NCBI GenBank assembly: GCA_027076405.1
Contig: JALTJN010000392.1
Span: 1 to 14,339 of the forward strand
DNA length: 14,339 nucleotides
Reading direction: 5' to 3'
Source: Chromatiales bacterium
GTDB taxonomy: Bacteria > Pseudomonadota > Gammaproteobacteria > UBA6429
The notes under the pieces are model-generated. The model searched no databases and was not told the DNA's origin. It saw nothing but the letters and a program-made list of their open reading frames with translations. Within the stretch, counting starts at the first letter, position 1. Each line of letters begins with the position of its first letter. The translations under genes and the position numbers were made by a program. This document shows positions 1 to 14,292 of the stretch, one piece after another.

Positions 1-436
1 GAGGTGTTTTTTCACTTTGCGGGACTTCCTGCACTTCACCAAACATCTCCGAAGTAGACGCTTGATAAAAACGAATTTTTGGATTAACAATACGAATGGC
101 TTCTAATAAACTTACCGCGCCAAGCCCGGTGATTTTTCCCGTAGTAATTGGCTGATCAAATGAAACAGCAACAAAACTTTGAGCAGCCAAATTATAAACT
201 TCATCCGGCTGCGCATTTTCAAGCAAGCGAATACTAGAACCTAAATCGGTTAAGTCGTATTCGGCAAGATGAAGATTAGGGTTATTTCTTATACCTAATT
301 CTTCTATACGCCAGAAATTCGTTGACGCTGTACGACGATAAGCGCCATAAACGGTGTAGCCTTTTTCAAGCAAAAGCTCAGCTAGATATGCGCCATCTTG
401 GCCAGTTATGCCTGTTATGATTGCTTTTTTATCCAC
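1..436 (-). CDS. gmd: GDP-mannose 4,6-dehydratase, N-terminal 145 residues (cut by window edge)
   Basis: Gmd converts GDP-D-mannose to GDP-4-keto-6-deoxy-D-mannose in the cytoplasm, the branch point to GDP-D-rhamnose, GDP-L-fucose, GDP-perosamine and related donors. I translated the reverse complement by hand. It opens with a short-chain dehydrogenase NAD(P)-binding fold whose glycine motif is GITGQDG (residues 9-15), followed by YGAYRRT near residue 30 and [13 protein letters not shown] near residue 81. The active-site stretch STSEMFG (127-133) supplies the family's catalytic Thr128 and Glu130; the Tyr and Lys of the site lie beyond the edge. The start is GTG at 436: the frame has a TAA two codons upstream, and GAGAAGG sits 7 bases before the GTG. 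The gene is 307 bases downstream of its neighbour, so it may have its own promoter. The partner enzyme (Rmd, Fcl or Per type) that would fix the final sugar is not in the window. Confidence 0.96.
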
Positions 437-443
437 TAGTTAA

Positions 444-450
444 CCTTCTC
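444..450 (-). promoter_or_regulatory. Shine-Dalgarno site that sets the GTG start of gmd
   Basis: On the minus strand this reads GAGAAGG, 7 bases before the GTG at 436. No ATG is available in frame because a TAA lies two codons upstream of the GTG, so this site supports the non-ATG start. Confidence 0.7.
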
Positions 451-567
451 TTAAATATATTAAATTCTAAAATAGAACGACTATTCATTTCTATATACAA
501 TACAAACCTCCATCTCACCTATTTTATCCAATTTACCTTTCCCAATGAATGATTTTAGCTAATTACT

Positions 568-595
568 AACTTATTGTTTTCATCCACACAGTCAA
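568..595 (-). promoter_or_regulatory. Possible sigma70 promoter upstream of gmd
   Basis: On the minus strand, TTGACT (590-595, five of six matches to the -35 consensus) is followed by a 16-base spacer and TAAGTT (568-573), which matches the -10 consensus only at the first two positions and the last. It would start transcription roughly 125 bases before gmd. In A+T-rich DNA such pairs arise by chance, so this is a weak call. Confidence 0.25.
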
Positions 596-743
596 GGATA
601 TGTTTTTTCAGCTTCATTGTTATCTTACCACTGATAAAATATGAGATGAATACAATCACCCTATCCCCTTTCGGAGGGCACATAATTAGACAAACCATAC
701 ACTGAAACCAGGTAATCACTCAAAACAACTTAAAAACAGTTAT

Positions 744-1601
744 CTAGAACTCATTCTTTCTACAAGGAAGCAAGGTCGCAATTAGAAAAAACAATAAATC
801 ACCACCAACAGTAATAACTCTTGATATCAAAACGGCTAGTAACATGTCTGCCTCAGCAACAAGCCCATTCAAAAATAACACCAACATCAGTTCACGTACT
901 CCAACACCCGCTGGAGCACCCGGTGTAACCATCCCCAATAGCAACGAAACTACAAATGCACCACAAAGTAATAATACCAGTTGGAAGGAAATTAAGTTGC
1001 CCCCTATAACAAAGGCAAATAGACCCGCAAACACCAAACCGGTAAGAACAAAGAAAACTGTATACAGTACTACGGCATATGCTATCTGCACACTTAAGTA
1101 CTTTCCTAAACCAGCAACAACAATTGCTACAATGCTAACAAACATTATTAGCACCCAAACACCAGATACCGTAATGGAAAAGTATGGTAACAGTAATATA
1201 CAAAAAAAGGCTGCTGACAGCGAAACAAGACCAAGTTCCCATGCCGAGGTTTTTGCCAGAGACCACCCCGAAATTCCGGATGCCATTCCCAATGATTGTC
1301 TACTAGCCAAATGTATAATATTTCCTGGAATATATTTGGCTAACTGAGAAACCCCAAAGATATTAATTGCACATAGATCAGTTACCTCAACTCCGAATTT
1401 TTTTAGCAATAATTTCCACGCTATAGCTAAAATAGTGACAGATAACGCATAAATAACTGTTAGAGCAATAATTATAAAAAAATCAAATATTGTAAATCGA
1501 GAAAAGTTAAGCTGTCCGCCATATTCAAATAACTTAAATACTACAAAAACAACACCTATAACACCTAAAACAAATCCAGCCCAGCGTAGAATTTTTTTCA
1601 T
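744..1601 (-). CDS. Flippase-like / LPG-synthase transmembrane family protein (PF03706-like)
   Basis: This 285-residue protein is almost entirely hydrophobic, with about seven or eight predicted membrane helices. It shows two marks I associate with the lysylphosphatidylglycerol-synthase-TM / AglD-like family: an early AKYIPGNIIHLASRQ segment (about residues 88-102) and a late GVGVRELMLVLF segment (about 236-247) followed by a final helix pair. It has no soluble catalytic domain. Family members in polysaccharide loci are often annotated as flippases or lipid-linked sugar helpers, but their activity is seldom proven. Here it lies downstream of a GtrB-like GT2, a methyltransferase and an acyltransferase, so a role in moving a polyprenyl-phosphate sugar across the inner membrane is a reasonable inference. 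It starts at ATG 1601 with no obvious Shine-Dalgarno site, 80 A+T-rich bases after the acyltransferase gene. Confidence 0.75.
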   Translation of the reverse strand: MKKILRWAGFVLGVIGVVFVVFKLFEYGGQLNFSRFTIFDFFIIIALTVIYALSVTILAIAWKLLLKKFGVEVTDLCAINIFGVSQLAKYIPGNIIHLASRQSLGMASGISGWSLAKTSAWELGLVSLSAAFFCILLLPYFSITVSGVWVLIMFVSIVAIVVAGLGKYLSVQIAYAVVLYTVFFVLTGLVFAGLFAFVIGGNLISFQLVLLLCGAFVVSLLLGMVTPGAPAGVGVRELMLVLFLNGLVAEADMLLAVLISRVITVGGDLLFFLIATLLPCRKNEF

Positions 1602-1681
1602 AAATTTGTATATATAAAAAATTGTTTTAGCATTTTAACGAAAATTAATAAAATATTTTCTTAATATTGCGCATAAAAATT

Positions 1682-2239
1682 TCAAACCCTTGGTACTTTA
1701 AGTTTTTTTATTACTTTTGCAGGAACTCCCGCAACAATTGTGTAAGGCTCTACATCTTTAGTAACAACAGCACCTGCAGCAACAACCGCTCCTTTACCAA
1801 TACTGCTTACAGGTTCAAGTATTATTGCTTTAGCACCTATCCACACGTTATCGTTAATAGTTAGTGAAGAAGAAACATACTCCCATGACGATTTAGGTCC
1901 TGTATTCACCTTATGATCATGTGTTTCAATCAACACACTCTGGCTAAGCCAGACATCATCACCTACTGTTACGCCACCACTATAATCAATTTCCACGTCT
2001 CGATGGATCTTTACCTGTTGACCAAAGACCAGATCACCACCACCTACTCCATGAGGTCTGACAAACAAACAATTTGACCCCACCAATAAACCACCTCCAG
2101 CAGTAAACAGCAGTTTAATAACTAAATGACGGAGATTAAGCAATGGAGGCATATCTGCCAACTTAAAGCCGACGAGTGTTTGCATTAGCCTACTAAAGGC
2201 CTCAAAAATCCAATTTAAATAATATTTTTTTTTACTCAA
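1682..2239 (-). CDS. Hexapeptide-repeat (LbH) acyltransferase, probably O-acetyltransferase
   Basis: The 185-residue protein has a basic, partly hydrophobic N-terminus (1-45) followed by a left-handed beta-helix built from imperfect hexapeptides, visible as [15 protein letters not shown] (90-104), [16 protein letters not shown] (126-141), [19 protein letters not shown] (145-163) and the closing [14 protein letters not shown] (166-179). THDH at 106-109 supplies the usual catalytic His (H107). It belongs to the maltose-acetyltransferase / NodL / WcaF type of acetyl-CoA-dependent sugar O-acetyltransferases; the acceptor sugar cannot be read from sequence. The start is TTG at 2239, supported by a strong AGAGGTGGG just upstream; the first in-frame ATG comes only at residue 20, beyond conserved-looking sequence. 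It follows the methyltransferase gene by 48 bases and probably adds an acetyl group to the same glycan or its precursor. Confidence 0.88.
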
Positions 2240-2241
2240 AA

Positions 2242-2250
2242 CCCACCTCT
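2242..2250 (-). promoter_or_regulatory. Strong Shine-Dalgarno site supporting the TTG start at 2239
   Basis: The minus strand reads AGAGGTGGG followed by TT and then TTG. The GAGGTG core lies at a workable distance from the TTG, which is why I take this rare start codon rather than the internal ATG at residue 20. Confidence 0.7.
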
Positions 2251-2287
2251 TTTAATACAAATACGCTTATGTAAATACAGGCACCTC

Positions 2288-3028
2288 CTACACACTCTTC
2301 TTTTTCGCACAAATGACTACCGTCAAGCCGAAAGGCAATTTAACACCATACTTAATAAGTTTTGATTCAATTTTTAAGATTCTATAAAAAACAAAACTCA
2401 GCAATGAGGATTTTGGAACCTTTTGCTTTTCTATTACTTTTTTCTTTTTAAAAAGCGATTTAACAAAAAGTAGGGAGCGAGCTGTAACTGCCAATGGAAA
2501 TAGAAACATATTAAAATAGCTTTTCTTAACAACAGTAAAATCATCTTTAAACAAAAAAGTAAATCTGGACAAAGAATAGCGCCTATAATGCATTAACACT
2601 CTATCATGATCACCAAACAACCACTGGTAGGCCGGAGCTGTAGCAATTACTATCCCATCATCATTTAAGTGTTCAAACAGCCAATCTACGGCTTCTTTAT
2701 CATTCTCTATGTGTTCGATAACATCAAAAGCACCGATTACATCATATTTTCTATCAAGCTTTTCAGGTATTGGTACTGTAATTAAGTTGCGTATAGAATC
2801 TATCCCTTTAAGTGACTCGATACCTTTTTCATTAATCTCAAGTGCGTCAACATTACCCCACTGACTTAGAACAGGTATATTTTGACCTATACCTGCCCCA
2901 ATTTCTAAAATATCTACAGTTTTACCAGAAACATGCCTCTGCATGATCTGCTTTATAAGCTCCATCCTTCCCTTGTGCAACCATGAAGTTGACTCACTTA
3001 TATAGTCACTATATGCATTATCCTCCAT
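2288..3028 (-). CDS. Class I SAM-dependent methyltransferase
   Basis: This 246-residue protein has a Rossmann-type SAM fold: motif I ILEIGAGIGQN at 40-50, an acidic ribose-binding end to strand 2 (ALEIN, 62-66), and FDVIEH at 101-106, the usual post-strand-4 site. After the fold comes HDRVLMHYRRYS (131-142), a stretch I associate with methyltransferases found next to DPM/GtrB-like GT2 enzymes. The C-terminus (about 153-246) is hydrophobic and Lys-rich, so membrane association is possible. It may methylate a sugar, a lipid-linked sugar or a chain end; the target is unknown. ATG 3028 overlaps the end of the upstream GT2 gene by 11 bases. An earlier ATG at 3073 would add 15 residues and overlap 56 bases; it has a GAGA-type site upstream, so the start is not settled. 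Confidence 0.88.
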   Translation of the reverse strand: MEDNAYSDYISESTSWLHKGRMELIKQIMQRHVSGKTVDILEIGAGIGQNIPVLSQWGNVDALEINEKGIESLKGIDSIRNLITVPIPEKLDRKYDVIGAFDVIEHIENDKEAVDWLFEHLNDDGIVIATAPAYQWLFGDHDRVLMHYRRYSLSRFTFLFKDDFTVVKKSYFNMFLFPLAVTARSLLFVKSLFKKKKVIEKQKVPKSSLLSFVFYRILKIESKLIKYGVKLPFGLTVVICAKKKSV

Positions 3029-4007
3029 CTGTATGTCCAATCTTGGTTTCAGACTCACTAACAACAATGTCATTATTATCTCTTATACTAGTTGAGCGAA
3101 TAAAAAGCTCACCAATCAGGCCAATTGATATCATCTGTACTGACAGAATACATAGCATCACTCCTAATAAGAGCAGAGGCCTGTCTCCTATAGGCCCTAA
3201 ATCAAGAACCCAAATCACAGATAAATAAGATAATATTCCCCCGCCAATAACCCCTGACATCACCCCTAAACCTCCAAACAGGTGTCCAGGCTTGTGCAGC
3301 CATCTTGTAGTAGCAAGAACCGTGATTAAGTCCAACATGCCTCTAACATATCTCTCAAATCCATATTTAGAGACCCCGTGCTCTCTTGGGTGATGCTCTA
3401 CTTCTATTTCACCAATATTAAAGCCTACATCATGTGCAAGCACTGGAATATAGCGATGAAGTTCTCCATAAACACGTACCGACTGAATAACCTCTTTTTT
3501 ATATGCTTTATAACCACAATTAAAATCGTGCAATTCAACCCCAGTAGCCCATGACGTAACCTTGTTAAATAACTTTGATGGCAGCGTCTTTGATATTGGA
3601 TCATAACGCCTTCGCTTCCATCCCGAGACCAAATCATACCCACTATCTAACAATTCCAGAAACTTTGGTATTTCTTTAGGATCGTCCTGTAGATCCGCAT
3701 CCATAGTAAAAATAACCTGGCCTGTTGCCCTACGAAAACCAACATCAAGCGCTACTGCTTTACCAAAATTCCTACGTAAACGGACTGCAATTATCTTGTT
3801 TTGATAGCTATCTGCAAGCTTACTCATAACAGACCAGGTGTTGTCCTTACTACCGTCATCAACAAAAATAATTTCAGTTTCGTAATTTTTTTGCAACCCT
3901 TCGACCACACCCATGATCTGTTTAGCAAGCACTTCCACTGTATCCTGTTCATCCATAGCTGGAATCACAAAACTTAGGCAGTTAATTTCATCTATATTCT
4001 TACTCAT
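3018..4007 (-). CDS. GT2 polyprenyl-phosphate glycosyltransferase (DPM1/GtrB/ArnC-like)
   Basis: This 329-residue protein has an N-terminal GT-A domain and two C-terminal membrane helices. Nucleotide-sugar and metal-binding signatures are FVDDGSKDNTW (48-58) and the DXD-type DADLQDDP (103-110), with RRNFGKAVAL (78-87) and DFNCGYKAYKKEV (161-173) typical of the bactoprenol/dolichol-phosphate sugar synthases. The helices lie about 243-267 and 276-305. The family moves a sugar from a nucleotide donor to undecaprenyl phosphate on the cytoplasmic face; the sugar cannot be read from sequence. It starts at ATG 4007 with a GAGA site 8 bases before, 29 bases after the GT-C gene. That neighbour is the natural user of the lipid-linked sugar, and the PF03706-like protein further on is a candidate flippase. 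Confidence 0.92.
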   Translation of the reverse strand: MSKNIDEINCLSFVIPAMDEQDTVEVLAKQIMGVVEGLQKNYETEIIFVDDGSKDNTWSVMSKLADSYQNKIIAVRLRRNFGKAVALDVGFRRATGQVIFTMDADLQDDPKEIPKFLELLDSGYDLVSGWKRRRYDPISKTLPSKLFNKVTSWATGVELHDFNCGYKAYKKEVIQSVRVYGELHRYIPVLAHDVGFNIGEIEVEHHPREHGVSKYGFERYVRGMLDLITVLATTRWLHKPGHLFGGLGVMSGVIGGGILSYLSVIWVLDLGPIGDRPLLLLGVMLCILSVQMISIGLIGELFIRSTSIRDNNDIVVSESETKIGHTDGG

Positions 4008-4036
4008 ATAATTATCTCAAGAATTTATTTTATTGA

Positions 4037-6346
4037 CTAGTTGTTATCTATTTTTGGTGACAACGAAACCTTTTGTAAAGCCATGCCTAAAAATCTATAA
4101 TCATTACTTCCTGGCTGACTCGGATTAAGTACATGAAACATCAACTTTATATTACCTTCATCAGAAATCATTTCCTTAGGCAATGTTGCAGTTAATTTTA
4201 CTTGAACACCATCCTCCCTGCTAAATTCATACTGGTCAATCATAACGCTATTAACAAACAGCTTTACTTTAAGTGGCTCTTTATCACGAGGATAAAAAGG
4301 CTTAAACCAAACATTCATTTCTAAATCATTAGATACTGGTTCTGACAACTGAACATTAAAGCCCGCATAATGACCTGATGACCAGTAATTGAGCGGGTCG
4401 GGCTGCCAACAAAAAGTAGGGGATATTCCATTTGACGAAAATTGATCACTACCAAGAACCTCACCAAGTTTGTACTTGGTGCCTAATATTTCTTTCTTTA
4501 CAAATCCAATATCCAGAAGAGCCGGGATAGCAGTTTCATCCCCTATTAAATGACTACGAATTTTCAGCTCCTTCCACTTAACATCACCCTTAATTCTGTC
4601 GTTATATACTTTAGTGTATACATCCCCTAAATCTACATTAACCAACTTATTACTTTTAGCTAACACACTCGCAAGTACAGTATCATTATCAATAAACTCG
4701 ACCTGCATATCACGTGTAGCATACAAATACATCCTCGATACTGGCTTGATTGACCCGCCTTGAAACAATACCAGCTTATCAAGCTGCATATCATTTTTAA
4801 CTAAATAATTGTAGCAGTTTTTATTTTTCGCCCCGGTTCTGAAAATAGCATCTCTACCACCGTCACTCCCCCCTGAAAAACGTAACGGCATAAGGAGATA
4901 CACAGAAGGCAATAAAGATGTTTCTAGCGAAAACACCTCACCCACAGGTGACAACATATAATTACTTGGACTTTTAACATTATCTTCTGTCAACGGAAAT
5001 ACGTTTGACTGTACAGCTACAGACACCATAAGACCTGACATACAAACTCCACTAACAAGGCCTTTCCTTGATATTATTGATTGAAAGAATGCACTCTTAC
5101 TAAAGAACACAAAAGCAATAACAATCATTGGTAACGCCTGCATCGTATATCTAGGGCCATAACTACCACTTCCTCCATATCCATTAGTAGGAAAAGCCAA
5201 CCAATAAATTACAAGATAAGTAAAGAAAGCACCCACTAACATTATGCTTCTCCACGTCAACCCACCCAGCAGTAGAAGCACTAGCAAAACAGCGACTGGA
5301 AAATACGCCAAAAGCCCTGTCTGCCTGCCAACAAAAAGATCAAGTGTTTTTTCTGGCAGTAGCTCGACATTTGATAAAATCGCATTAAATAATGTCATTG
5401 CGTTAAATATTTTATCCGTCAAACCATGATCTGGAACACCAGGCCAATCCTTCTCTAATGGATATGTACCGATAATGCTTAATGATGTAACTTTAAATCT
5501 GAGCCCCTGATAAGGAAGAAGATTACCATCCTGAAACAAATGAACACTCGTGGGTAAGAACCACCCGACTAGCATTACCACCCCCAACATGAGCCACAGT
5601 CGAAATCCGACTAACGAAAACTGCGAAACCATTAAGGCCATAGCAAATATAATAAACGTGGGTTTTTCGTAAACTGCCATACCCATAATAAAAGCACCTG
5701 ACAGCTTATATAATATAACTCTATCTTCTCGATCACTCAAAAGGAGATAGCCCCCTAATATTAACAATGTAGCTATAAAAATATCTGGGTGTGATACTGG
5801 CGTCCAAGCCAGATATGGACTGAACAGCATTAGCCCACTAACCAACATTAGGGCATTTAAGCCACCAATATGCCTGGTTAATATTTTTATCGAAATCAAA
5901 CCAATCAGGCCGACACATATCATATTAAAAATAAGGAACCCAACCAGTCCAAACAATCCAACAAATGGTGATGTAAATAAAGCATATAAAAAAGGTTTAG
6001 CGTAATAAAGCTGATTATCATCACCAACTTTCAAGAAAGCCCCTCTCGGCCCCGTCTCTGAAGGCAACTCCCCCCTAAAACGTGAAAGATCTGCTAGTGT
6101 GTATACCAAATCATGGTCATACCACAAGCTTAGTGCTCCTGCTATATGAACCGCTTGATCACTATATAAATGTTTTGCCCCGGCTGAAGGATAATTGACA
6201 ATCCCAACAGCCATTAATATAAGAATTACGGACAGCCATAAGATTAACGCCAGGTTATCATTATCATGTCGACTAAATATTCGAAGCATTTTGTCTTTGC
6301 GAATTTTTTTATTTAAATTAAAAATAATTCTTTGAAGGTAGCTCAT
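4037..6346 (-). CDS. Polytopic GT-C-like glycosyltransferase with large C-terminal soluble domain
   Basis: In this 769-residue protein, residues 31-450 hold about ten or eleven membrane helices. Residues about 451-769 are soluble and predicted extracytoplasmic. The first loop after helix 1 carries YSDQAVHIAGALSLWYDHDL (61-80), where D63 is placed like the catalytic Asp of GT-C enzymes, and GGSGSYGPRYTMQALP (391-406) resembles the late GPRY loop of bacterial GT-C proteins. GT-C enzymes use polyprenyl-phosphate sugars on the periplasmic side, which fits the GtrB-like enzyme encoded next. The tail looks rich in beta strands near its end, perhaps a carbohydrate-binding sandwich, but I do not recognise the family. 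ATG 6346 has TAAGGTG 8 bases upstream; the next Met is residue 20. It follows the GT4 gene by 65 bases. A polymerase or ligase role is less likely. Confidence 0.78.
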   Translation of the reverse strand: MSYLQRIIFNLNKKIRKDKMLRIFSRHDNDNLALILWLSVILILMAVGIVNYPSAGAKHLYSDQAVHIAGALSLWYDHDLVYTLADLSRFRGELPSETGPRGAFLKVGDDNQLYYAKPFLYALFTSPFVGLFGLVGFLIFNMICVGLIGLISIKILTRHIGGLNALMLVSGLMLFSPYLAWTPVSHPDIFIATLLILGGYLLLSDREDRVILYKLSGAFIMGMAVYEKPTFIIFAMALMVSQFSLVGFRLWLMLGVVMLVGWFLPTSVHLFQDGNLLPYQGLRFKVTSLSIIGTYPLEKDWPGVPDHGLTDKIFNAMTLFNAILSNVELLPEKTLDLFVGRQTGLLAYFPVAVLLVLLLLGGLTWRSIMLVGAFFTYLVIYWLAFPTNGYGGSGSYGPRYTMQALPMIVIAFVFFSKSAFFQSIISRKGLVSGVCMSGLMVSVAVQSNVFPLTEDNVKSPSNYMLSPVGEVFSLETSLLPSVYLLMPLRFSGGSDGGRDAIFRTGAKNKNCYNYLVKNDMQLDKLVLFQGGSIKPVSRMYLYATRDMQVEFIDNDTVLASVLAKSNKLVNVDLGDVYTKVYNDRIKGDVKWKELKIRSHLIGDETAIPALLDIGFVKKEILGTKYKLGEVLGSDQFSSNGISPTFCWQPDPLNYWSSGHYAGFNVQLSEPVSNDLEMNVWFKPFYPRDKEPLKVKLFVNSVMIDQYEFSREDGVQVKLTATLPKEMISDEGNIKLMFHVLNPSQPGSNDYRFLGMALQKVSLSPKIDNN

Positions 6347-6411
6347 AACTCTTACACCTTAATATTGCTCTTATGTTGCAGCATCATTTAATAACAAATA
6401 AATAATCGCTA

Positions 6412-8955
6412 TCACACATGCTCATTATTTGAAGAGTCAAATTGTATCGTATTAATTTCATTTTCCCCGAGCAATGCTCGTGTTAATTGCTCTGCACTTT
6501 CCTTCCAGGTCAACCATTTCATATGAGCAGATTGAGGCGCATTACCAGCTTCGTTTAATTCAATCCAAGACTTGATTACATCTGAGATAGACTCAGGTGA
6601 AAAACCATCAAAATACAAAGCATGGTTACCGGCAACTTCATGAAATACCGGAATGTCTCGCGCTATGATAGGCAGTTTATGCTGAGCAGCTTCTATCAAT
6701 GGTAAGCCAAAACCTTCTCCCTCACTAGCAGCAATCAAGCATTTACTATTTTCATACACTGCTAGTAGAAATTCATCACTCACACCTTCAAACCAGAACA
6801 GCTGCTTATTAAGACGGCTGTGTATACGAACACTATCAATGAAATCGTCAACAAGCCACCCAGCTTTACCGACAATCACTAGTATTATATCTAAGCCATC
6901 ATCCCACAACTGCTCAAACGCCTGCAGCACCTGCTTATGTCCTTTACGTGGTTCAATAGTTCCCACCATAAGAAAGCTCATCGAATCACTCAAATCGTCA
7001 AGAACACCTATATCTTCATTGTCCTGTAATTTTGTAGGCAAACTGTTTTCAATATCAGCTCCTAAATAAAAATACTTAATGTTGAGACTTTGCACCCTAT
7101 CAGGCTGGTTACAATTCAACCAATCATAAACTTCTTCAGCAACAGATCTCGAAATACAAATATAACACGATGCAATATCGGATGTATTATGCAACCATTG
7201 TTTAAACATAACACTACACTCTTTCTGCCACCATTCTGGATGCTGAACCAACAAGATATCATAAACCGTGAAATTCAATTTCACGCCATATAATTTCATT
7301 TTTTCTAATATTGGGCGAGTTATTTCAGAGGTACTATAATTAAGATCCAGTGATAAATAAATATCGCGTGACGAATATTCAATGCATTGATCATCAATAA
7401 CCCTTTTCTTTCCATTCTTCAATGAATTCACAAAATCATCTGCGTAGTAAAACTTCCCCCTCCTGTAATATATAGGCCTAACATCGTACTCATTTGAGTC
7501 ATCACTAAGCAGCTCCATTAATAAACTACGTACAACCCTCTGAATTCCACTTTTTGCATCGACACCAACAATTACAGAAACATCAAGAAATAACTTTACA
7601 CTATTTGCTAACAGCGACTTATTGAGCGCAACACCATGAGATAAATTTATAACATCCTGCTCAAGGCATTCAAACTCATTACAACGCTCAATCAAAGATA
7701 GTAGCAAGCCATCAACATTAAATTTTTTCATATCATGACTAAAGGCTTTTAACTTATACAATTTTTCATATTGATCTACAGTTATGCGAGCTGGGTTAAT
7801 CTTTAAAAGCATAAGAGCTTCACTCATCACATATTGTTTAAGTGAATCACGGAAATCACATGAGGAAAACACTTTCACTAATACTGAAAACACATCTTCA
7901 GCACTTTTGAAATTAACAAGGAATTCTTCCAATGTAATAATGTCTGTATACTCATTACACTTTGAACCTATAATAGGAGCACCACACAGCATCGCCTGCT
8001 CTAAACAAATTCTATCAACTGAAGGCAAACCCAAAAAAACATTGCAAAAATTAAATAGATAAGCTAGTTCCTGATTCGAAACATCTCCAAGCACAACCAC
8101 CATGTTAATATCAAGCGAATATGATTCCAGACACTCGACTAGCAACGCATAATCCTTTGCCTTCACTTTTCCAAACATAACCAATTGAATGGCACCCTTA
8201 ATCTCACTTGAAAAACATGAAAGGGCTTCAATTACATTATTCATACAGTTATCATGAAAAATATTTTCAGTAGAACACAAAATATATTCTTTATTAATAC
8301 CCATAGATCTGAGGATTACATCTTTTTCATTAGCCGGCATTTCATGACACTTAAACACTTTGTCTACAGCATATGACGTGTAAACCACCTTATCTGCATC
8401 CAAATCCAATGAATCAGTTAAAATATTTTTTATTGACTTAGAACCAGTTAAAAGACAATCTGCACTATTAAACAAAACTTCATTATTATTGAAGACACTC
8501 ATGTTTATTGAAGATATTTTAGCATCATCACTCATTAAAGACTGTTGACTTGGAACTGAAATAACCAACGAATAGTTCCTTTCATTAATTATTACTGAAC
8601 TTAATATATCTAAATCGTTTTTATTTAATGGTGCGAACAAATGCACAATATTAGGACTCAGTGCTGCTAGAATACTTTCACGAACATTACTTAATACACA
8701 TGAATGCCATTCATCAAATACGTCAACCACATCTATACAAGCAGAAAATACAATAAATTTATCATGCGACAAAAGCCCATCAAACTCACTCCGTATAATT
8801 GACACTGCTTCAGGATACAAATCATTTAACATAACCCAAACATCATCCGATGACGCTTGCTTAAGAATTTGTTTTGCATATTCAAGTGAATTATGTAGCA
8901 CACCAAAACGCACAGGCTCCATCTGACATGCCTGCAAATCTAGTACTACCTTCAT
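6412..8955 (-). CDS. Two-domain GT4 glycosyltransferase (MtfB/WbdA-like), N-terminal domain degenerate
   Basis: This 847-residue protein has two GT-B halves. The C-terminal half (about 455-830) starts with LFLDVSVIVGVDAKSGIQRV (456-475), a common opening of MtfB-type mannosyl/rhamnosyltransferases. It has VGTIEPRKGHKQVL (664-677), giving R670-K671, and EGFGLPLIE (747-755), the intact EX7E pair E747/E755. This half should be active on a GDP- or other nucleotide-activated sugar. The N-terminal half (1-400) keeps the GT-B outline, but P311 replaces the first Glu of EX7E (second is E319), and the usual Arg/Lys site is absent around STENIFHDN (228-236). The layout recalls E. coli WbdA, which has two GT domains and extends mannan O-antigens. 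The start ATG 8955 overlaps the sulfotransferase stop by one base (TGATG), with AAAAGG just upstream; a TTG one codon earlier is possible. Confidence 0.88.
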   Translation of the reverse strand: MKVVLDLQACQMEPVRFGVLHNSLEYAKQILKQASSDDVWVMLNDLYPEAVSIIRSEFDGLLSHDKFIVFSACIDVVDVFDEWHSCVLSNVRESILAALSPNIVHLFAPLNKNDLDILSSVIINERNYSLVISVPSQQSLMSDDAKISSINMSVFNNNEVLFNSADCLLTGSKSIKNILTDSLDLDADKVVYTSYAVDKVFKCHEMPANEKDVILRSMGINKEYILCSTENIFHDNCMNNVIEALSCFSSEIKGAIQLVMFGKVKAKDYALLVECLESYSLDINMVVVLGDVSNQELAYLFNFCNVFLGLPSVDRICLEQAMLCGAPIIGSKCNEYTDIITLEEFLVNFKSAEDVFSVLVKVFSSCDFRDSLKQYVMSEALMLLKINPARITVDQYEKLYKLKAFSHDMKKFNVDGLLLSLIERCNEFECLEQDVINLSHGVALNKSLLANSVKLFLDVSVIVGVDAKSGIQRVVRSLLMELLSDDSNEYDVRPIYYRRGKFYYADDFVNSLKNGKKRVIDDQCIEYSSRDIYLSLDLNYSTSEITRPILEKMKLYGVKLNFTVYDILLVQHPEWWQKECSVMFKQWLHNTSDIASCYICISRSVAEEVYDWLNCNQPDRVQSLNIKYFYLGADIENSLPTKLQDNEDIGVLDDLSDSMSFLMVGTIEPRKGHKQVLQAFEQLWDDGLDIILVIVGKAGWLVDDFIDSVRIHSRLNKQLFWFEGVSDEFLLAVYENSKCLIAASEGEGFGLPLIEAAQHKLPIIARDIPVFHEVAGNHALYFDGFSPESISDVIKSWIELNEAGNAPQSAHMKWLTWKESAEQLTRALLGENEINTIQFDSSNNEHV

Positions 8956-10418
8956 CAACCTTTTCTCACTTTAATGTGTTTAATAAGATTTTTATATATA
9001 GCTTTAGCTGATGGATTAAGATCTTCTACGTTCTTAGGATACATGTACTTCTCTACATACCCTTTCTCATTAGAGGGCAACACATAATAGCGACCCTTTA
9101 GACATGTAGTGGCATTAATCAATACCTTAACAACGTGCTTTGTTCGTGGTTTATCCTTTAAATAACGCTTCACATACCCAATATTTTTTTTTATTACATT
9201 TTTAATAAAATCCAAAATTTTTCGCAATGGTGCACTACCCCTCCATATTGTACTTTTCTTAATACTCTCTAGCTCATTGCTTAGATTAAATTGACATTCA
9301 TTAGCTATTCGCAATTCTTCTTCAACCTGCTCGAGCAGATCACGAACTGACCCAAGCTTTGAGTACATTGCCGAAATTTCAGATTCAGATTGATAAAACA
9401 GCTCACGCATTCTAAATATATCCTTTATATCAGGTGCACACGAATTATCATTTATATCTCTATAACGCCTGTTTTCAAGCGTCATACTTTTCAATTTATT
9501 TATTTCTGATGTAGTATATCCATCCCTCGTAAGATATTCGTATACTTGCTCTTCAACATTCTTAAAAAACATTTCATCATCATCACCATAGACAGATAAG
9601 GAAATGGAGCAGTCATCAAAATTCAACCCTGAAACACCAAATTGCTCAAGCCTTTCTATCGTAAATTCACGATACTCAATAGATTCACTTAAAGCATCGA
9701 TGCTAATCGCCATATCACAATTAGGCATAGCTTCAAGCACCGCATGACACCAAAGTGCATAAAAAACCTTATAACTATCAACTGAACTTAATTTAATATT
9801 ACATTCGAACTCAGCACATACGCTGGCGTTTCCGCAATCAATTATACCCAATTCATGCCGTATAGATTTTATATAACCAGGCAGGTTATCAGCACTTGAT
9901 ATTAAAATATTACATTGATCAAAATATGGATCTTTTTTATATGACCACCATTGATCCCATGGATTTCTCCATAGAAACACATGAACACCGCCTATTTCTG
10001 ATTTTAATGACTGAACTCGACCTGCTGTACGGCAGCATTGAAACACCGGACGCCCTTTGGAACCATTAGCCAAGACCTTGAAATAGCTAATCAATTCAGC
10101 GCCAACTTTCAACTCATTAGAAAAATATTGCTCATATGAAAAACCTTTTCGAAAGCTCTTACCGACCTCATCAGCGATACAGTAAAACTCATAAAAATAT
10201 GGTTTTTTCATTTCAGGATGTCTTAAATATTTTCCTTTCTCTTTGCTGATTTCCAGGAGACGCTCTGGCTCATTTTTCGCATGCAATAAATACTCATTTA
10301 ATGGTTCCTGATAGCACCAGTAACCATATACCGACTGTCTAAACACATTAAAAATATATGTGCTACCTGACCGAAACAATGAGTGTATAAATACAGGCGA
10401 ATCAATTTGTTTATTCAT
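8955..10418 (-). CDS. PAPS-type sulfotransferase fused to a coiled coil, candidate chain-terminating enzyme
   Basis: This 487-residue protein starts with VFIHSLFRSGST (9-20), the 5'-phosphosulfate loop of sulfotransferases (R16, S17, G18, S19, T20). FLWRNPWDQWWSY (148-160) is the 3'-phosphate site with the R-x7-S pair R151/S159. It should therefore move sulfate from PAPS to a hydroxyl, probably on a sugar. Residues 335-387 form a heptad-like, charged helix, very likely a coiled coil, followed by STIWRGSAPLRKILDFIKNV (389-408) and a basic tail. A catalytic head on a coiled coil beside wzt resembles WbdD, which caps O8/O9a chains and measures their length. I infer, but cannot prove, a capping role. 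I chose ATG 10418, seven bases after the wzt stop, because the sulfate loop starts eight residues later. An ATG at 10475 or a TTG at 10493 would extend into wzt. Confidence 0.85.
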   Translation of the reverse strand: MNKQIDSPVFIHSLFRSGSTYIFNVFRQSVYGYWCYQEPLNEYLLHAKNEPERLLEISKEKGKYLRHPEMKKPYFYEFYCIADEVGKSFRKGFSYEQYFSNELKVGAELISYFKVLANGSKGRPVFQCCRTAGRVQSLKSEIGGVHVFLWRNPWDQWWSYKKDPYFDQCNILISSADNLPGYIKSIRHELGIIDCGNASVCAEFECNIKLSSVDSYKVFYALWCHAVLEAMPNCDMAISIDALSESIEYREFTIERLEQFGVSGLNFDDCSISLSVYGDDDEMFFKNVEEQVYEYLTRDGYTTSEINKLKSMTLENRRYRDINDNSCAPDIKDIFRMRELFYQSESEISAMYSKLGSVRDLLEQVEEELRIANECQFNLSNELESIKKSTIWRGSAPLRKILDFIKNVIKKNIGYVKRYLKDKPRTKHVVKVLINATTCLKGRYYVLPSNEKGYVEKYMYPKNVEDLNPSAKAIYKNLIKHIKVRKG

Positions 10419-10425
10419 AAAACCA

Positions 10426-11709
10426 TTACTTTGAAACAATTGTTTCGGGGACTTCTGAATAGCTAAATTTTGCATCAAGATCCACAAGCCCAACCTGATT
10501 AATATCTGTATTTTTTTTGACTTTAAACATCAACACATCGACTCTTCGATGCAAAAATACTACGCTCTCCCCATCATTATCACGAACGCCACAGTTTACA
10601 AAATATGTTCCTGGTGACAGATGATTATCAAGACTGAATGTTACATCCACTACGTTTCCAGACTCATAGACTCTAGTCTGTTTTTCAAGCGACGCACTAC
10701 TATCACAACCATAAAGAGATATACCTTCCATTGTCTTTATTAAGAAAGCAAAAACAGGATGATTAACACTTGAATAAAAAGAAACTCTGTATTTCAGGTG
10801 AAAAGTATCACCTACCTCTATAACATTAACTCTAGAACCACTATCATTTTCTAGCCAAACTTTTTCTATTGTCGCCCTACCATCACCATAGCTTAAATCA
10901 TTAACATTAAGTATTTCTAAATCAATATCTGAATTAACTTCTTCAACTCCCATATTCAGTCCATCTTCTAATGAACGTTCATTAGAGCCAAACAGGTACT
11001 GCTCATAGGCATCACACATTTTTTTGGCTTCGCCGTAGCCTTTCGCTTTTCCATTTTCAAGAAATAATACGCTTGAGCAGCTTTTTTTAATACTCTCTAT
11101 ATCGTGGCTTACCAATAGCAGAGCCATACCATCATTAACATACTGCTCGATTCGACGATAACATTTACGCTGAAATGCAGCATCGCCAACAGATAGCGCC
11201 TCATCAATAATCAGAATTTCAGGACGAACTGCTATTACAACTGCAAACGCCACTCTCATCTGCATTCCACTAGAATATGTTCGAACAGGCTGATCAAAAT
11301 ATTCACCTACATCTGCAAACTCTTCGAGTTCGGGCATCAATTTTTCAATTTCAGGGTGACTGTATCCCATTAAACCAAGACCATGTCGTGCGTTCTGACA
11401 ACCCGAAAACTCAGGATTAAACCCCATACCCAATTCTAAAATAGCTGCTATTCGCCCATTTATAGATATACTACCTTCAGTAGGGCGTTGCGTGCCAGTA
11501 ATTAATTTCAAGAGAGAACTTTTGCCTGCACCATTTTGACCAACTATTCCAATAGCTTCTCCCTGTGAAATTGAAAAACTGATATCACGTAACACCCAAT
11601 GCTCTTCAATCGGGCTTACAGGAAAACCAAACCAAGAAAGCACGCGACGTAATTCCGACCTGTAAACACGATATGCTTTACCTAACTCAGTTACATTAAG
11701 CAAACTCAT
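10426..11709 (-). CDS. wzt: Polysaccharide ABC exporter ATPase with C-terminal glycan-binding domain
   Basis: This 427-residue protein has a complete ABC ATPase in residues 1-240: Walker A GQNGAGKS (57-64), the Wzt-type LELGMGFNPEFSG (91-103), signature YSSGM (145-149), Walker B ILIIDE (165-170) and H-loop His202. A linker leads to a beta-rich domain at about 260-405 that matches the Wzt C-terminal domain in place and size. In E. coli O8/O9a this domain binds the capped non-reducing end and makes export depend on the cap; capsule-type and some O-antigen ATPases lack it. It pairs with Wzm to export finished undecaprenyl-linked chains across the inner membrane. ATG 11709 overlaps the wzm stop by four bases (ATGA), which implies translational coupling. 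The sulfotransferase gene starts seven bases after its stop. Confidence 0.95.
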   Translation of the reverse strand: MSLLNVTELGKAYRVYRSELRRVLSWFGFPVSPIEEHWVLRDISFSISQGEAIGIVGQNGAGKSSLLKLITGTQRPTEGSISINGRIAAILELGMGFNPEFSGCQNARHGLGLMGYSHPEIEKLMPELEEFADVGEYFDQPVRTYSSGMQMRVAFAVVIAVRPEILIIDEALSVGDAAFQRKCYRRIEQYVNDGMALLLVSHDIESIKKSCSSVLFLENGKAKGYGEAKKMCDAYEQYLFGSNERSLEDGLNMGVEEVNSDIDLEILNVNDLSYGDGRATIEKVWLENDSGSRVNVIEVGDTFHLKYRVSFYSSVNHPVFAFLIKTMEGISLYGCDSSASLEKQTRVYESGNVVDVTFSLDNHLSPGTYFVNCGVRDNDGESVVFLHRRVDVLMFKVKKNTDINQVGLVDLDAKFSYSEVPETIVSK

Positions 11710-12500
11710 AACACATCAACCATTTCGGAACTTGCACGACGGAATAAAAAAACCGCTATACCAAGCAATAAAATACTGCAACCTAACACCACTAATAAAC
11801 CAAACCATTCTGGTGGCCTGGAGAAAACCAGTACATCCTGATACGCAGTAACAATATGGTACATAGGATTTAGCACCAACCACTCTCGATATGCTTCTGG
11901 AATTATACTTTGCATATATACAATAGGCGTAAACCAAAACCCAAACTGCATTATCACTGGCATTATCTGACCAATATCCCTCATAAACACGTTTAATACG
12001 CCTAGTATCAAACCGACACTCAAGGCAAACGCAACAGTAATCACAAACAGTACCGGCAGCCACAGCATATTTATACCCGGGAAATGCCCTAACAAGGCAA
12101 AAATCACCAGTATACAAGCCAACATCAATATATTATTTATTAATACTGACCCTGTGATAATTAATGGTAAACATATTTTGGGGAATACCATTTTTTTCAT
12201 TAAATTACCATTGTCTATAAAAATAGTCAGACAGCGTAATATTATTTCAGAAAATAGTGACCATGAAAGTATTCCTGCTGTTAGATAAATGGCATATGAA
12301 AAACCACTTTCTATTTCCGGTAATTTAACAGAAAGTACTGCTGACAATACGAGCGCATACATTAATACCTGTGAAAGAGGATGTAAAACCATCCATGCAC
12401 CACCTAACTTGCTCCGTGCAAAACGTGACTTAAAATCATTACGGATAGACGAAAGAATAAAATATCGGTAGCTCCATATGGCCAAAAAGAACCCATTCAT
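11706..12500 (-). CDS. wzm: Polysaccharide ABC exporter permease (ABC-2 type)
   Basis: This inner-membrane channel subunit is about 264 residues long and shows some six membrane helices. It has the classic N-terminus of the family: an amphipathic stretch and YRYFILSSIRNDFKSRFARS, then LGGAWMVLHPLSQVLMYAL leading into helix 1. It should form a dimer with Wzt and pass the undecaprenyl-linked polysaccharide to the periplasm. The start is uncertain. A GTG at 12533 adds 11 residues, but its only purine-rich site, AAAGG, touches the codon. The ATG at 12500 has GGAAAAG upstream at a workable distance and gives the usual family length, so I prefer it. The gene follows manC by 117 A+T-rich bases and overlaps wzt by four. 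Confidence 0.93.
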   Translation of the reverse strand: MNGFFLAIWSYRYFILSSIRNDFKSRFARSKLGGAWMVLHPLSQVLMYALVLSAVLSVKLPEIESGFSYAIYLTAGILSWSLFSEIILRCLTIFIDNGNLMKKMVFPKICLPLIITGSVLINNILMLACILVIFALLGHFPGINMLWLPVLFVITVAFALSVGLILGVLNVFMRDIGQIMPVIMQFGFWFTPIVYMQSIIPEAYREWLVLNPMYHIVTAYQDVLVFSRPPEWFGLLVVLGCSILLLGIAVFLFRRASSEMVDVL

Positions 12501-12617
12501 TTTAAAACTTTTCCAAGTTACAGTATTTTTCACCCTTTAATAAATTTAAACAGCTATTCACTAATTTATTTTGAATTAGTCTAACATTCTGCAATTTATA
12601 AAATACAACAAAAAACA

Positions 12618-14075
12618 TCAACACCGCCCATAAACATCATCAAACCGCACAATGTCATCTTCACCTAAATACTCGCCACTTTGCACCTCAATAAGCACCA
12701 TATCCATTTTTCCTGGATTTTCCAAACGATGCTTGTGCCCCGCAGGTATAAAAGTAGACTCATTTTGTTTAAGAAGTATTTCTTCATCACCATTTACAAT
12801 TTTGGCCGAGCCACTAACCACAACCCAGTGCTCACTTCGGTGATAATGCATTTGCAATGAAAGTGATGCGCCCGCCTTTACAACAATACGTTTAATTTTA
12901 AATCTTTCACCTTCTTCAAGTATTGTGTATGTACCCCAGGGGCGCACGACAGTTCTATGAAGATGCGCCGCATCATGACCACTTGATCGCAGATGCTCAA
13001 CAACCTGCTTCACATCTTGCACCCTGTCTTTATCAGCAATCAACAACGCATCTTCTGTATCAATTACAACTAAATTTTTCAGCCCAACACCAGCAATCAA
13101 CCTTTGCTTACTTTGAATTAATGTATTTTCAACATCAACCACCACCACCTCTCCATCAATTCGGTTGCCCGCTTCATCCGCTTCAATCATGTCACCCATA
13201 GATTGCCAGCAACCGACATCACTCCAGCCAAAATCGGAGGGCACAACAACGACATCTTCGGCCTTTTCCATTATTGCGTAATCTATCGAAATATCTGGCA
13301 CTTCCTGAAAGCTCGATAAATCCAGCCTCATTACATTAGCATCATAAGATTCATTATTCTGACTAGCACTAAAACAAGCTAAGGCGGCTGAATGAACATC
13401 GGGAGAATATTGTTGAAGCGCATTAAGTATTGTGTCAGCCCTAAAACAAAACATGCCAGAATTCCACAGATACCTGCCGGCTTGAAGGTATTGCTCGGCT
13501 GTTTCTAAAGACGGTTTTTCTACAAACTGTTTGACTCGATGCGCTGAAAGGTTATTTTCGGATGATGAAGCAAGCTCTTTACCGGTTTCAATATAGCCAT
13601 AACCGGTTTCTGGTTTATGGGGTTTTATACCAAAAGTAACCAGATGCCCATCGTTTGCTAAATTAGTTGCAAAACTAACGGTTTGCTCAAACTGTTCTTT
13701 ATTTTCAATAATATGGTCGGCAGATAAAACCAGCATGATAGTATCAGGGCCATATTGCTCAGCTGCCATCAAAGCAGCCATTGCTATTGCCGGTGCCGTA
13801 TTTCTGCCAACAGGTTCTAGCAAAAAAGCCGTTTCAAGATATGGATGAGACTGCTTAATAAAATCCAGCTCGTCCTTACTCATATAATAGTAATCACTAT
13901 TCGTTATGGTGAGCAAGCCTTTTGCATTCGGTAACTCTGCCGCTCTAAGATAGGTTTTATGAATTAATGTTTCGCCATCGGGTAACTTCACAAAGGGCTT
14001 GGGAAATGCTTTTCTAGAAACGGGCCACAGTCTGGAACCACTGCCGCCTGATAACAAAACTGGTAGTACTTCCAT
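12618..14075 (-). CDS. manC: Mannose-1-phosphate guanylyltransferase / mannose-6-phosphate isomerase
   Basis: This 485-residue bifunctional type II enzyme (ManC/AlgA/CpsB/WbpW family) isomerises fructose-6-phosphate to mannose-6-phosphate and makes GDP-mannose from mannose-1-phosphate and GTP; a phosphomannomutase elsewhere must supply the middle step. The nucleotidyltransferase domain opens with LSGGSGSRLWPVSRKAFPKP (8-27) and includes QFVEKPS (about 182-188). The C-terminal cupin (about 370-480) carries the isomerase signature QMHYHRSEHWVVVSGSA and a later PAGHKHRLENPG. All key motifs are present and the length is normal. GDP-mannose is also the substrate of the Gmd encoded at the far end of the cluster. 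ATG 14075 is preceded by AAAGGG at 13 bases, a rather long spacing. It is the first protein gene after tRNA-Ala; the 141 bases between show no clear terminator. Confidence 0.97.
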   Translation of the reverse strand: MEVLPVLLSGGSGSRLWPVSRKAFPKPFVKLPDGETLIHKTYLRAAELPNAKGLLTITNSDYYYMSKDELDFIKQSHPYLETAFLLEPVGRNTAPAIAMAALMAAEQYGPDTIMLVLSADHIIENKEQFEQTVSFATNLANDGHLVTFGIKPHKPETGYGYIETGKELASSSENNLSAHRVKQFVEKPSLETAEQYLQAGRYLWNSGMFCFRADTILNALQQYSPDVHSAALACFSASQNNESYDANVMRLDLSSFQEVPDISIDYAIMEKAEDVVVVPSDFGWSDVGCWQSMGDMIEADEAGNRIDGEVVVVDVENTLIQSKQRLIAGVGLKNLVVIDTEDALLIADKDRVQDVKQVVEHLRSSGHDAAHLHRTVVRPWGTYTILEEGERFKIKRIVVKAGASLSLQMHYHRSEHWVVVSGSAKIVNGDEEILLKQNESTFIPAGHKHRLENPGKMDMVLIEVQSGEYLGEDDIVRFDDVYGRC

Positions 14076-14216: not shown

Positions 14217-14292
14217 TGGTGGAGCTATGCGGGATCGAACCGCAGACCTCAACACTGCCAGTGTTGCGCTCTCCCAGCTGAGCTATAGCCCC
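14217..14292 (-). tRNA. tRNA-Ala (anticodon GGC)
   Basis: The minus strand folds as a full cloverleaf: 7-bp acceptor stem starting GGGGCTA, D arm GCTC/GAGC, anticodon stem CAACA/TGTTG with loop CTGGCAG (anticodon GGC, reads GCC), T arm GCGGTTCGATCCCGC and a 3' ACCA that includes an encoded CCA. Total length is 76 bases. It closely resembles the enterobacterial alanine GGC tRNA. Its 3' end faces the polysaccharide cluster. Confidence 0.97.

What the first reader, a model, noticed from the sequence alone, without database searches (positions are those of the whole stretch)
8955..10418. Sulfotransferase head on a coiled coil: candidate sulfate-capping terminator with a built-in molecular ruler
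The sequence shows both PAPS-binding signatures (FRSGST at 15-20; R151 with S159) followed by a likely coiled coil (335-387). Established knowledge: in E. coli O8/O9a the terminator WbdD joins a catalytic head (methyltransferase, plus kinase in O9a) to a coiled coil that sets chain length. Inference: here a sulfotransferase replaces that head, so sulfate would be the terminal cap. I know of no characterised ABC-type O-antigen with such a cap, though I cannot search to confirm that.
Basis: partly seen in the sequence, partly recalled or inferred. Interest (0 to 1): 0.75.

Follow-up and report, generated by a model that had tools for sequence, protein, structure and literature searches.

The report
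Sulfotransferase-headed O-antigen chain terminator
This gene looks like a bacterial surface-sugar "stopper" in which a sulfate-adding enzyme has replaced the usual methylating one on an otherwise familiar length-measuring rod, so these cells probably end their sugar chains with a sulfate, a cap that I could not find described for this kind of chain.

Summary
ORF 10418-8955 (minus strand, 487 aa) has both PAPS-binding motifs, a head predicted to have a sulfotransferase fold, one 59-residue heptad helix and a basic amphipathic tail. (2) It recurs: of 48 usable genome loci, 25 of 29 with a long tail hold Wzm or Wzt_C genes, 0 of 19 with a short one. Some relatives are sulfotransferase-coil-glycosyltransferase fusions; related tails carry methyltransferase heads; Wzt type follows head type, Wzm does not clearly. 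Best reading: a sulfate-capping chain terminator on a WbdD-type chassis, with a short ruler (60 residues against 131 in WbdD). Sulfate transfer, its position and chain-length control are inferred, not shown.

The parts
8955..10418 (-). Sulfotransferase-coil-tail protein (487 aa), candidate chain terminator
   Evidence: translation; family; ATG 7 nt after the wzt stop, TGA overlaps the next ATG
9459..10418 (-). Head, residues 1-320, sulfotransferase fold
10359..10376 (-). FRSGST, residues 15-20, 5'-phosphosulfate-binding loop (motif name recalled)
9942..9968 (-). RNPWDQWWS, residues 151-159, 3'-phosphate-binding motif (name recalled)
   Evidence: R151 and S159 in 63 of 63 loci aligned
9258..9434 (-). 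Coiled-coil helix, residues 329-387, proposed ruler
8958..9257 (-). Tail, residues 388-487, homologous to the WbdD C-terminus (membrane and polymerase-recruiting region in WbdD)
   Evidence: amphipathic +6 helix 396-422
9222..9254 (-). STIWRGSAPLR, residues 389-399, the window's form of the SxSWRxTxPLR motif at the end of the coil
6412..8958 (-). Two-module GT4 polymerase, WbdA homologue
   Evidence: 31% over 845 aa to WbdA, E 2.8e-132
10426..11709 (-). wzt, ATPase with Wzt_C carbohydrate-binding domain
   Evidence: PF00005, PF14524; 40% to O9 Wzt
10477..10893 (-). Wzt C-terminal domain (residues 273-411), the part expected to read the cap
11706..12533 (-). wzm, ABC permease
   Evidence: PF01061; 39% to O9 Wzm
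12618..14075 (-). manC, GDP-mannose supply
   Evidence: TIGR01479

Best explanation
The protein is a chain terminator of an O9a-like, ABC-transporter-dependent O-polysaccharide. The WbdA-type polymerase (6412-8958) builds a chain on a lipid carrier at the inner membrane. The tail of the sulfotransferase protein binds the membrane and holds the polymerase; the coil keeps the sulfotransferase head roughly 90 A away (60 residues at 1.5 A); only a chain long enough to reach the head receives a sulfate from PAPS on its non-reducing end sugar, which blocks further growth; the C-terminal domain of Wzt recognises the sulfated end and Wzm/Wzt export the chain. Shown by computation: head fold and motifs, coil, homology of tail and neighbours with the O9 system, recurrence, fusions, head swapping, and association of Wzt type with head type. 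Inferred: the reaction, its position, the recruitment, the ruler action and the export signal.
For: Head. Coil. Tail homologous to WbdD 569-706 (64 bits, E 6e-21 in a set of six proteins); with the coil excluded WbdD is the only hit at E<=1 among 328 E. coli frames and their reversals (E 9e-15). Gene order manC-wzm-wzt-terminator-WbdA as in E. coli HS O9, apart from manB. Context: Wzm or Wzt_C in 25 of 29 long-tail against 0 of 19 short-tail usable loci; WbdA-like gene directly downstream in 20 of 33 against 0 of 25. Fusions sulfotransferase-coil-GT in L018, L043, L044, L056, a layout like K. pneumoniae O12 WbbB and O7 ORF6 (PMC11231755, passages). Related tails on methyltransferase heads in 16 of 20 proteins scanned. 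Head-type changes on trees: Wzt C-terminal domain 4, Wzt ATPase 5, Wzm 11. APS kinase in 16 of 16 genomes of relatives.
Against: No biochemistry. Four of 29 usable long-tail loci show no Wzm/Wzt_C (L005, L040, L049, L064). In 5 of the 29 long-tail loci with ABC genes no Wzt C-terminal domain was found: L016, L019, L020 have a short Wzt, in L025 and L029 only Wzm was found; a cap cannot be read by such a domain there. Generic ABC-ATPase hits lie in six short-tail loci (L010, L017, L038, L042, L054, L060); they came without a Wzm hit and were not counted. The independent-pair test on the head tree is too small to decide (4 pairs; same way 2.6, opposite 0, no difference 1.4; p 0.25). On the 42-row tree five sulfotransferase rows lie on the side of the other heads, and starred branches alone force only 2 (Wzt C-terminal), 3 (ATPase) and 3 (Wzm) changes. 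APS kinase is also in 11 of 14 control genomes, so it says little. In Aeromonas salmonicida a 216-aa sulfotransferase ORF lies between wzt and wbbB and its authors found no such residue in the O-antigen (PMC4483657, passages); whether it belongs here I did not test.
Confidence: 0.72

Rival explanations
1. The head sulfates internal sugars along the chain (decoration), and the coil-tail only tethers it to the polymerase.
For: Sulfated repeats are known in bacterial capsules, e.g. Cobetia marina with PAPS genes in the cluster (PMC11766843, passages). Some relatives lie in loci where no Wzt C-terminal domain was found.
Against: The tail is of terminator type; related tails carry methyltransferases, many next to a Wzt with C-terminal domain; Wzt follows head type, as expected for an end cap; no PAPS-making gene is among the ten window proteins scanned.
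Confidence: 0.13
2. The head has a sulfotransferase fold but transfers another group or is inactive, and the protein limits length only as a scaffold.
For: No Pfam/NCBIfam sulfotransferase model matches; fold does not prove reaction; identity to solved enzymes is 8-15%.
Against: R16, S19, T20, E38, H67, R130, R151, W157 and S159 are present in 29 of 29 long-tail loci with ABC genes, though the loci were found with patterns that include part of those motifs.
Confidence: 0.1
3. The gene belongs to a glycan other than O-antigen (an exopolysaccharide or capsule) but works as a terminator all the same.
For: No ligase or outer-membrane gene was recognised among the window proteins scanned; the host genome is not held.
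Against: Wzm, Wzt and the polymerase match the O9 O-antigen cluster; that is the only characterised cluster I compared.
Confidence: 0.05

Closest known systems
WbdD of E. coli O8/O9a (methyltransferase; methyltransferase-kinase)
   Same: Position between wzt and wbdA, coil spacer, homologous C-terminal tail, Wzt with C-terminal domain, WbdA-type polymerase (compared with the O9 cluster of E. coli HS)
   Different: Unrelated head (sulfotransferase fold); spacer 60 against 131 residues. 131 residues at 1.5 A give about 196 A, close to the ~200 A reported for WbdD (PMC5082667, passages).
K. pneumoniae O12 WbbB and O7 ORF6 (terminator-coil-polymerase in one chain)
   Same: Terminator head, coil, then glycosyltransferases; relatives L018, L043, L044, L056 have this layout (PMC11231755 passages)
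   Different: Window protein is not fused; heads there are a Kdo transferase (O12, recalled) and a methyltransferase-kinase (O7)
K. pneumoniae O4 ORF7 (GT137)
   Same: Terminator head on a C-terminal coil (PMC11231755, passages)
   Different: Adds Kdo; extra TPR-like bundle
HNK-1 sulfotransferase ending matriglycan in animals
   Same: 3-O-sulfation by it is said to end elongation of the chain made by LARGE1 (PMC9746966, passage)
   Different: Animal Golgi system without a coil ruler (recalled); no sequence comparison was made here
Tyrosylprotein sulfotransferases TPST1/2 and other PAPS sulfotransferases
   Same: Fold and PAPS motifs
   Different: About 10-13% identity to the TPSTs, other acceptors (recalled), no coil or tail (recalled)

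Membership tests
Coiled-coil chain terminators of ABC-dependent polysaccharides (as described in PMC11231755) | Catalytic head separated by an extended coil from a C-terminal region | tested here: met
Coiled-coil chain terminators of ABC-dependent polysaccharides (as described in PMC11231755) | C-terminal tail of WbdD type | tested here: met
Coiled-coil chain terminators of ABC-dependent polysaccharides (as described in PMC11231755) | Encoded with Wzm, Wzt carrying a carbohydrate-binding domain, and a polymerase | tested here: met
Coiled-coil chain terminators of ABC-dependent polysaccharides (as described in PMC11231755) | Adds a blocking group to the non-reducing end and sets chain length | not testable with these tools
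   needs biochemistry and mutants
WbdD proper | Methyltransferase (and kinase) head | tested here: not met
   Against WbdD only coil and tail give a significant alignment; the head has a sulfotransferase fold. It is not filed as WbdD.
PAPS-dependent sulfotransferases (fold superfamily) | Sulfotransferase fold | tested here: met
PAPS-dependent sulfotransferases (fold superfamily) | 5'-phosphosulfate loop and 3'-phosphate Arg/Ser | tested here: met
   (motif definitions recalled)
PAPS-dependent sulfotransferases (fold superfamily) | PAPS-dependent sulfate transfer | not testable with these tools
   APS kinase in 16 of 16 genomes of relatives only shows that PAPS can probably be made there
Named Pfam/NCBIfam sulfotransferase families | Match to any such model at E<=0.1 | tested here: not met
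WbbB/O7-type fused terminator-polymerase | Glycosyltransferase modules on the same chain | tested here: not met
   window protein ends after the tail; relatives meet it

The most novel reading that the evidence does not exclude
WbdD-type coil and tail are a general terminator chassis whose heads have been exchanged repeatedly (sulfotransferase, class-I methyltransferase, FkbM, methyltransferase-kinase, perhaps a PIG-L-like head), and Wzt changes with the head: an end-cap code in which sulfate is one letter, spread over Pseudomonadota, Thermodesulfobacteriota, Nitrospirota and Myxococcota.
Probability: 0.6. Interest if true: 0.85.

Novelty: new variant of a known kind. Interest (0 to 1): 0.76.

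Why it matters
Caps on ABC-exported O-antigens in the passages seen here are methyl, methyl-phosphate and Kdo. A sulfate cap would be a new, charged ending, a new export signal to study in Wzt, and a natural test of the ruler model, since spacers in this family range from 46 to 288 residues on the same kind of head (68 of 120 relatives measured). It would also give a role to the tail-bearing members of a family in which none of the 120 proteins listed has a functional name, and a bacterial parallel to the animal enzyme said to end matriglycan with sulfate.

Tried and rejected
Own-genome search: none held. Viral contigs: no match to the patterns. Plasmids: two distant hits, matching head residues only (9-355 and 8-189). 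A search with the tail alone among 5.8 billion proteins scored 245 candidates and found 4 proteins, the query itself included; profile searches of genomes worked instead. A simple heptad counter as coil caller across loci was too crude: it gives nothing for L015, which AlphaFold predicts as one helix of 144 residues (333-476; mean confidence under 60 after about residue 430); with that counter Wzm was near in 17 of 25 coil against 5 of 23 other loci. I then used tail length and tried 60, 90 and 120 residues (25 of 36 against 0 of 12; 25 of 33 against 0 of 15; 25 of 29 against 0 of 19); 120 is the one quoted. Dropped before those counts: L062, L063, L065 (gene cut off by the contig end) and, of the other 63 loci, those with under 2.5 kb upstream or cut within a short tail, leaving 48. 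With no upstream limit it is 29 of 36 against 0 of 25 at 120 residues (L027 and L045, cut by the contig end and with ABC genes, left out). Rarity: only 8 of 369 genomes of one class matched the family profile; two of these eight are sulfotransferase-coil genes (one the centre genome's own), two more match the head only and four the tail only. Considered and rejected: tandem-repeat origin of the window's coil (none found); a stand-alone sulfotransferase that happens to lie in the cluster (coil, tail and recurrent context speak against it). Literature (PubMed Central open library only; judged by titles, starts of abstracts and some passages): no paper holds both WbdD and sulfotransferase, none sulfotransferase with Wzt, coiled coil and O antigen; searches showed no bacterial sulfotransferase terminator among what was listed. 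The 2020 J Biol Chem review on O-antigen length control is not held, nor the 2014-2015 WbdD ruler papers, so earlier mention cannot be excluded.
Full report
Observation. The finding's interval holds one ORF on the minus strand, 10418-8955, 487 aa. Its ATG lies 7 nt after the wzt stop, and its TGA overlaps the ATG of the next gene, so the genes are packed as an operon: manC, wzm, wzt, this gene, a two-module GT4 enzyme, a long membrane protein, an ArnC-like GT2, a methyltransferase, a hexapeptide acyltransferase, a membrane protein and the start of gmd (gmd named by eye).

Coil and tail. The model has one helix from 329 to 387, a short break with a turn of helix at 388-395, helices at 396-422 and 424-438, an unsure loop and a last helix at 469-486. 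The long helix keeps one heptad register; its hydrophobic contrast was reached in 0 of 5000 shuffles. Helix 396-422 is amphipathic with net charge +6 (moment reached in 0.2% of 3000 shuffles). Across the family the end of the coil is marked by SxSWRxTxPLR, found by pattern in 69 of 121 proteins (the window's variant escapes the pattern), and a last motif like LSPxAxxIYxxL follows in many. The distance from head to motif is 60 residues here, 46 to 288 (median 131.5) in the 68 of 120 relatives in which it could be measured, and 131 in WbdD counted from residue 459. At 1.5 A a residue WbdD's 131 residues give about 196 A, near the ~200 A published (PMC5082667, passages), so the window's ruler would be near 90 A and its chains shorter than O9a's, if the rule carries over. 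A relative from Aromatoleum (L015) is predicted with one helix of 144 residues, though confidence is low in its last third.

Homology with the O9 system. I fetched the O9 cluster of E. coli HS. Window Wzm is 39% identical over 258 positions, Wzt 40% over 428, and the GT4 enzyme 31% to WbdA over 845, co-linear. A profile of 55 family tails plus the window's aligns with WbdD 569-706 of 708 (64 bits). With the coil left out, WbdD is the only match at E<=1 among 328 E. coli reading frames and their reversals (E 9e-15). The window's coil and tail alone reach E 5e-5. In WbdD the C-terminal region recruits WbdA, and mutants without WbdD make but cannot export the polymer (PMC3482155, passages). The order manC-wzm-wzt-terminator-polymerase is shared, apart from manB.

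Recurrence. A scan of genome contigs gave 66 loci, 63 with a readable ORF. Among 48 with at least 2.5 kb upstream and not cut, 25 of 29 with 120 or more residues after the head hold Wzm or Wzt_C, and 0 of 19 shorter ones do (Fisher 8e-10; cut-offs of 60 and 90 give the same picture). Both profiles were built from hits to the window's Wzm and Wzt in these same loci, so distant transporters could be missed; generic ABC-ATPase hits without Wzm lie in six short-tail loci. Long-tail genes are followed directly by a gene similar to the window's polymerase (phmmer E<1e-5) in 20 of 33 loci, short-tail ones in 0 of 25. Relatedness inflates such numbers: on a tree of 49 heads the tail changes 7 times, and only 4 independent pairs on well-supported branches remain, in which the ABC genes go the same way in 2.6 on average, the opposite way in none and do not differ in 1.4 (p 0.25). 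Four long proteins have GT domains after the coil: L018, L043, L044, L056 (seven proteins scanned). L020 and L029 have instead a DUF4214 domain; L020 sits with a short Wzt, in L029 only Wzm was found. In all, Wzt_C is present in 24 of the 29 long-tail loci with ABC genes. The short relative L006 lies among a GMC oxidoreductase, a carbamoyltransferase, a haem-oxygenase-like protein and others, a different setting.

Head swapping. In 369 genomes of one class the whole-family profile hit eight; two are sulfotransferase-coil genes beside wzt (L067, L068), two match by the head only (L069, L070) and four by the tail only. By eye, of these four L071 and L074 have a class-I methyltransferase head and L072 and L073 an FkbM-like one, and a Wzt_C lies upstream of L071 and L072. 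A tail profile matched in 71 of 399 genomes of one order at E<=1e-6; many matches cover only coil and motif. Of the 30 loci fetched there, one is the centre genome's sulfotransferase gene; I scanned 20 of the other 29 with Pfam: 16 have a methyltransferase domain (10 FkbM, 5 class I, 1 Methyltransf_24), one a PIG-L domain, one only GT2 domains and two nothing. Of 24 regions fetched around tail-only proteins (L107-L130), 20 hold a Wzt with C-terminal domain.

Does Wzt follow the cap? For 42 loci with both genes (27 sulfotransferase, among them three whose gene is cut off, and 15 other heads, one of them not scanned by Pfam and two judged by eye) the fewest changes of head type are 4 on the tree of Wzt C-terminal domains, 5 on that of Wzt ATPase domains and 11 on that of Wzm; shuffled labels give about 12.5, as low in 0, 0 and 111 of 500. 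Without six long-branch rows the numbers are 1, 2 and 7, as low in 0, 0 and 91 of 500. Sulfotransferase loci of Betaproteobacteria (L013, L015, L018) group with other sulfotransferase loci, not with the other heads, which came mostly from one order. Limits: quick trees; five sulfotransferase rows (L009, L063, L041, L032, L039) lie on the side of the other heads in the full tree; starred branches alone force only 2, 3 and 3 changes; and the ATPase half follows nearly as well as the binding half.

PAPS. APS kinase is in 16 of 16 genomes of relatives searched, but also in 11 of 14 control genomes, so this only fails to refute. The window's own genome is not held.

Verdict. I judge it a new variant of WbdD-type terminators: same chassis, new capping chemistry. 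Activity, position of the sulfate and length control are unproven.

Noticed in passing
window 14217-14292 (-): tRNA-Ala (GGC) lies just upstream of manC, at the edge of the cluster; a possible junction of an exchanged cluster. GC is 33-39% in the 1.5-kb bins of 1-13500, so no change of composition marks it there.
   Followed up: no
window 3018-6346 (-): An ArnC/GtrB-like GT2 next to a 769-aa membrane protein (weak LA_3751-type glycosyltransferase match) looks like a periplasmic side-chain glycosylation pair, with the 285-aa membrane protein at 744-1601 as a possible flippase.
   Followed up: no
L020 9977-13948, L029 9974-12679: Sulfotransferase-coil proteins with a DUF4214 domain near the C-terminus and no Wzt C-terminal domain found nearby; a second architecture.
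   Followed up: partly
L068 1489-2975: The sulfotransferase-coil gene is split into two overlapping ORFs shortly after the SxSWRxTxPLR motif; natural break or sequencing error unknown.
   Followed up: no
P0005: Coil made of near-identical AEQAEAK repeats, suggesting that ruler length can change by repeat number.
   Followed up: no
L003, L004, L006, L007: Close relatives of the window's head (41-47% identity) end 49-73 residues after the head, with no Wzm or Wzt_C found in the locus; their role is unknown.
   Followed up: partly
Aeromonas salmonicida wbsalmo cluster (PMC4483657): A 216-aa sulfotransferase ORF between wzt and wbbB with no such residue found in the O-antigen; a single end sulfate might have been missed.
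   Followed up: partly
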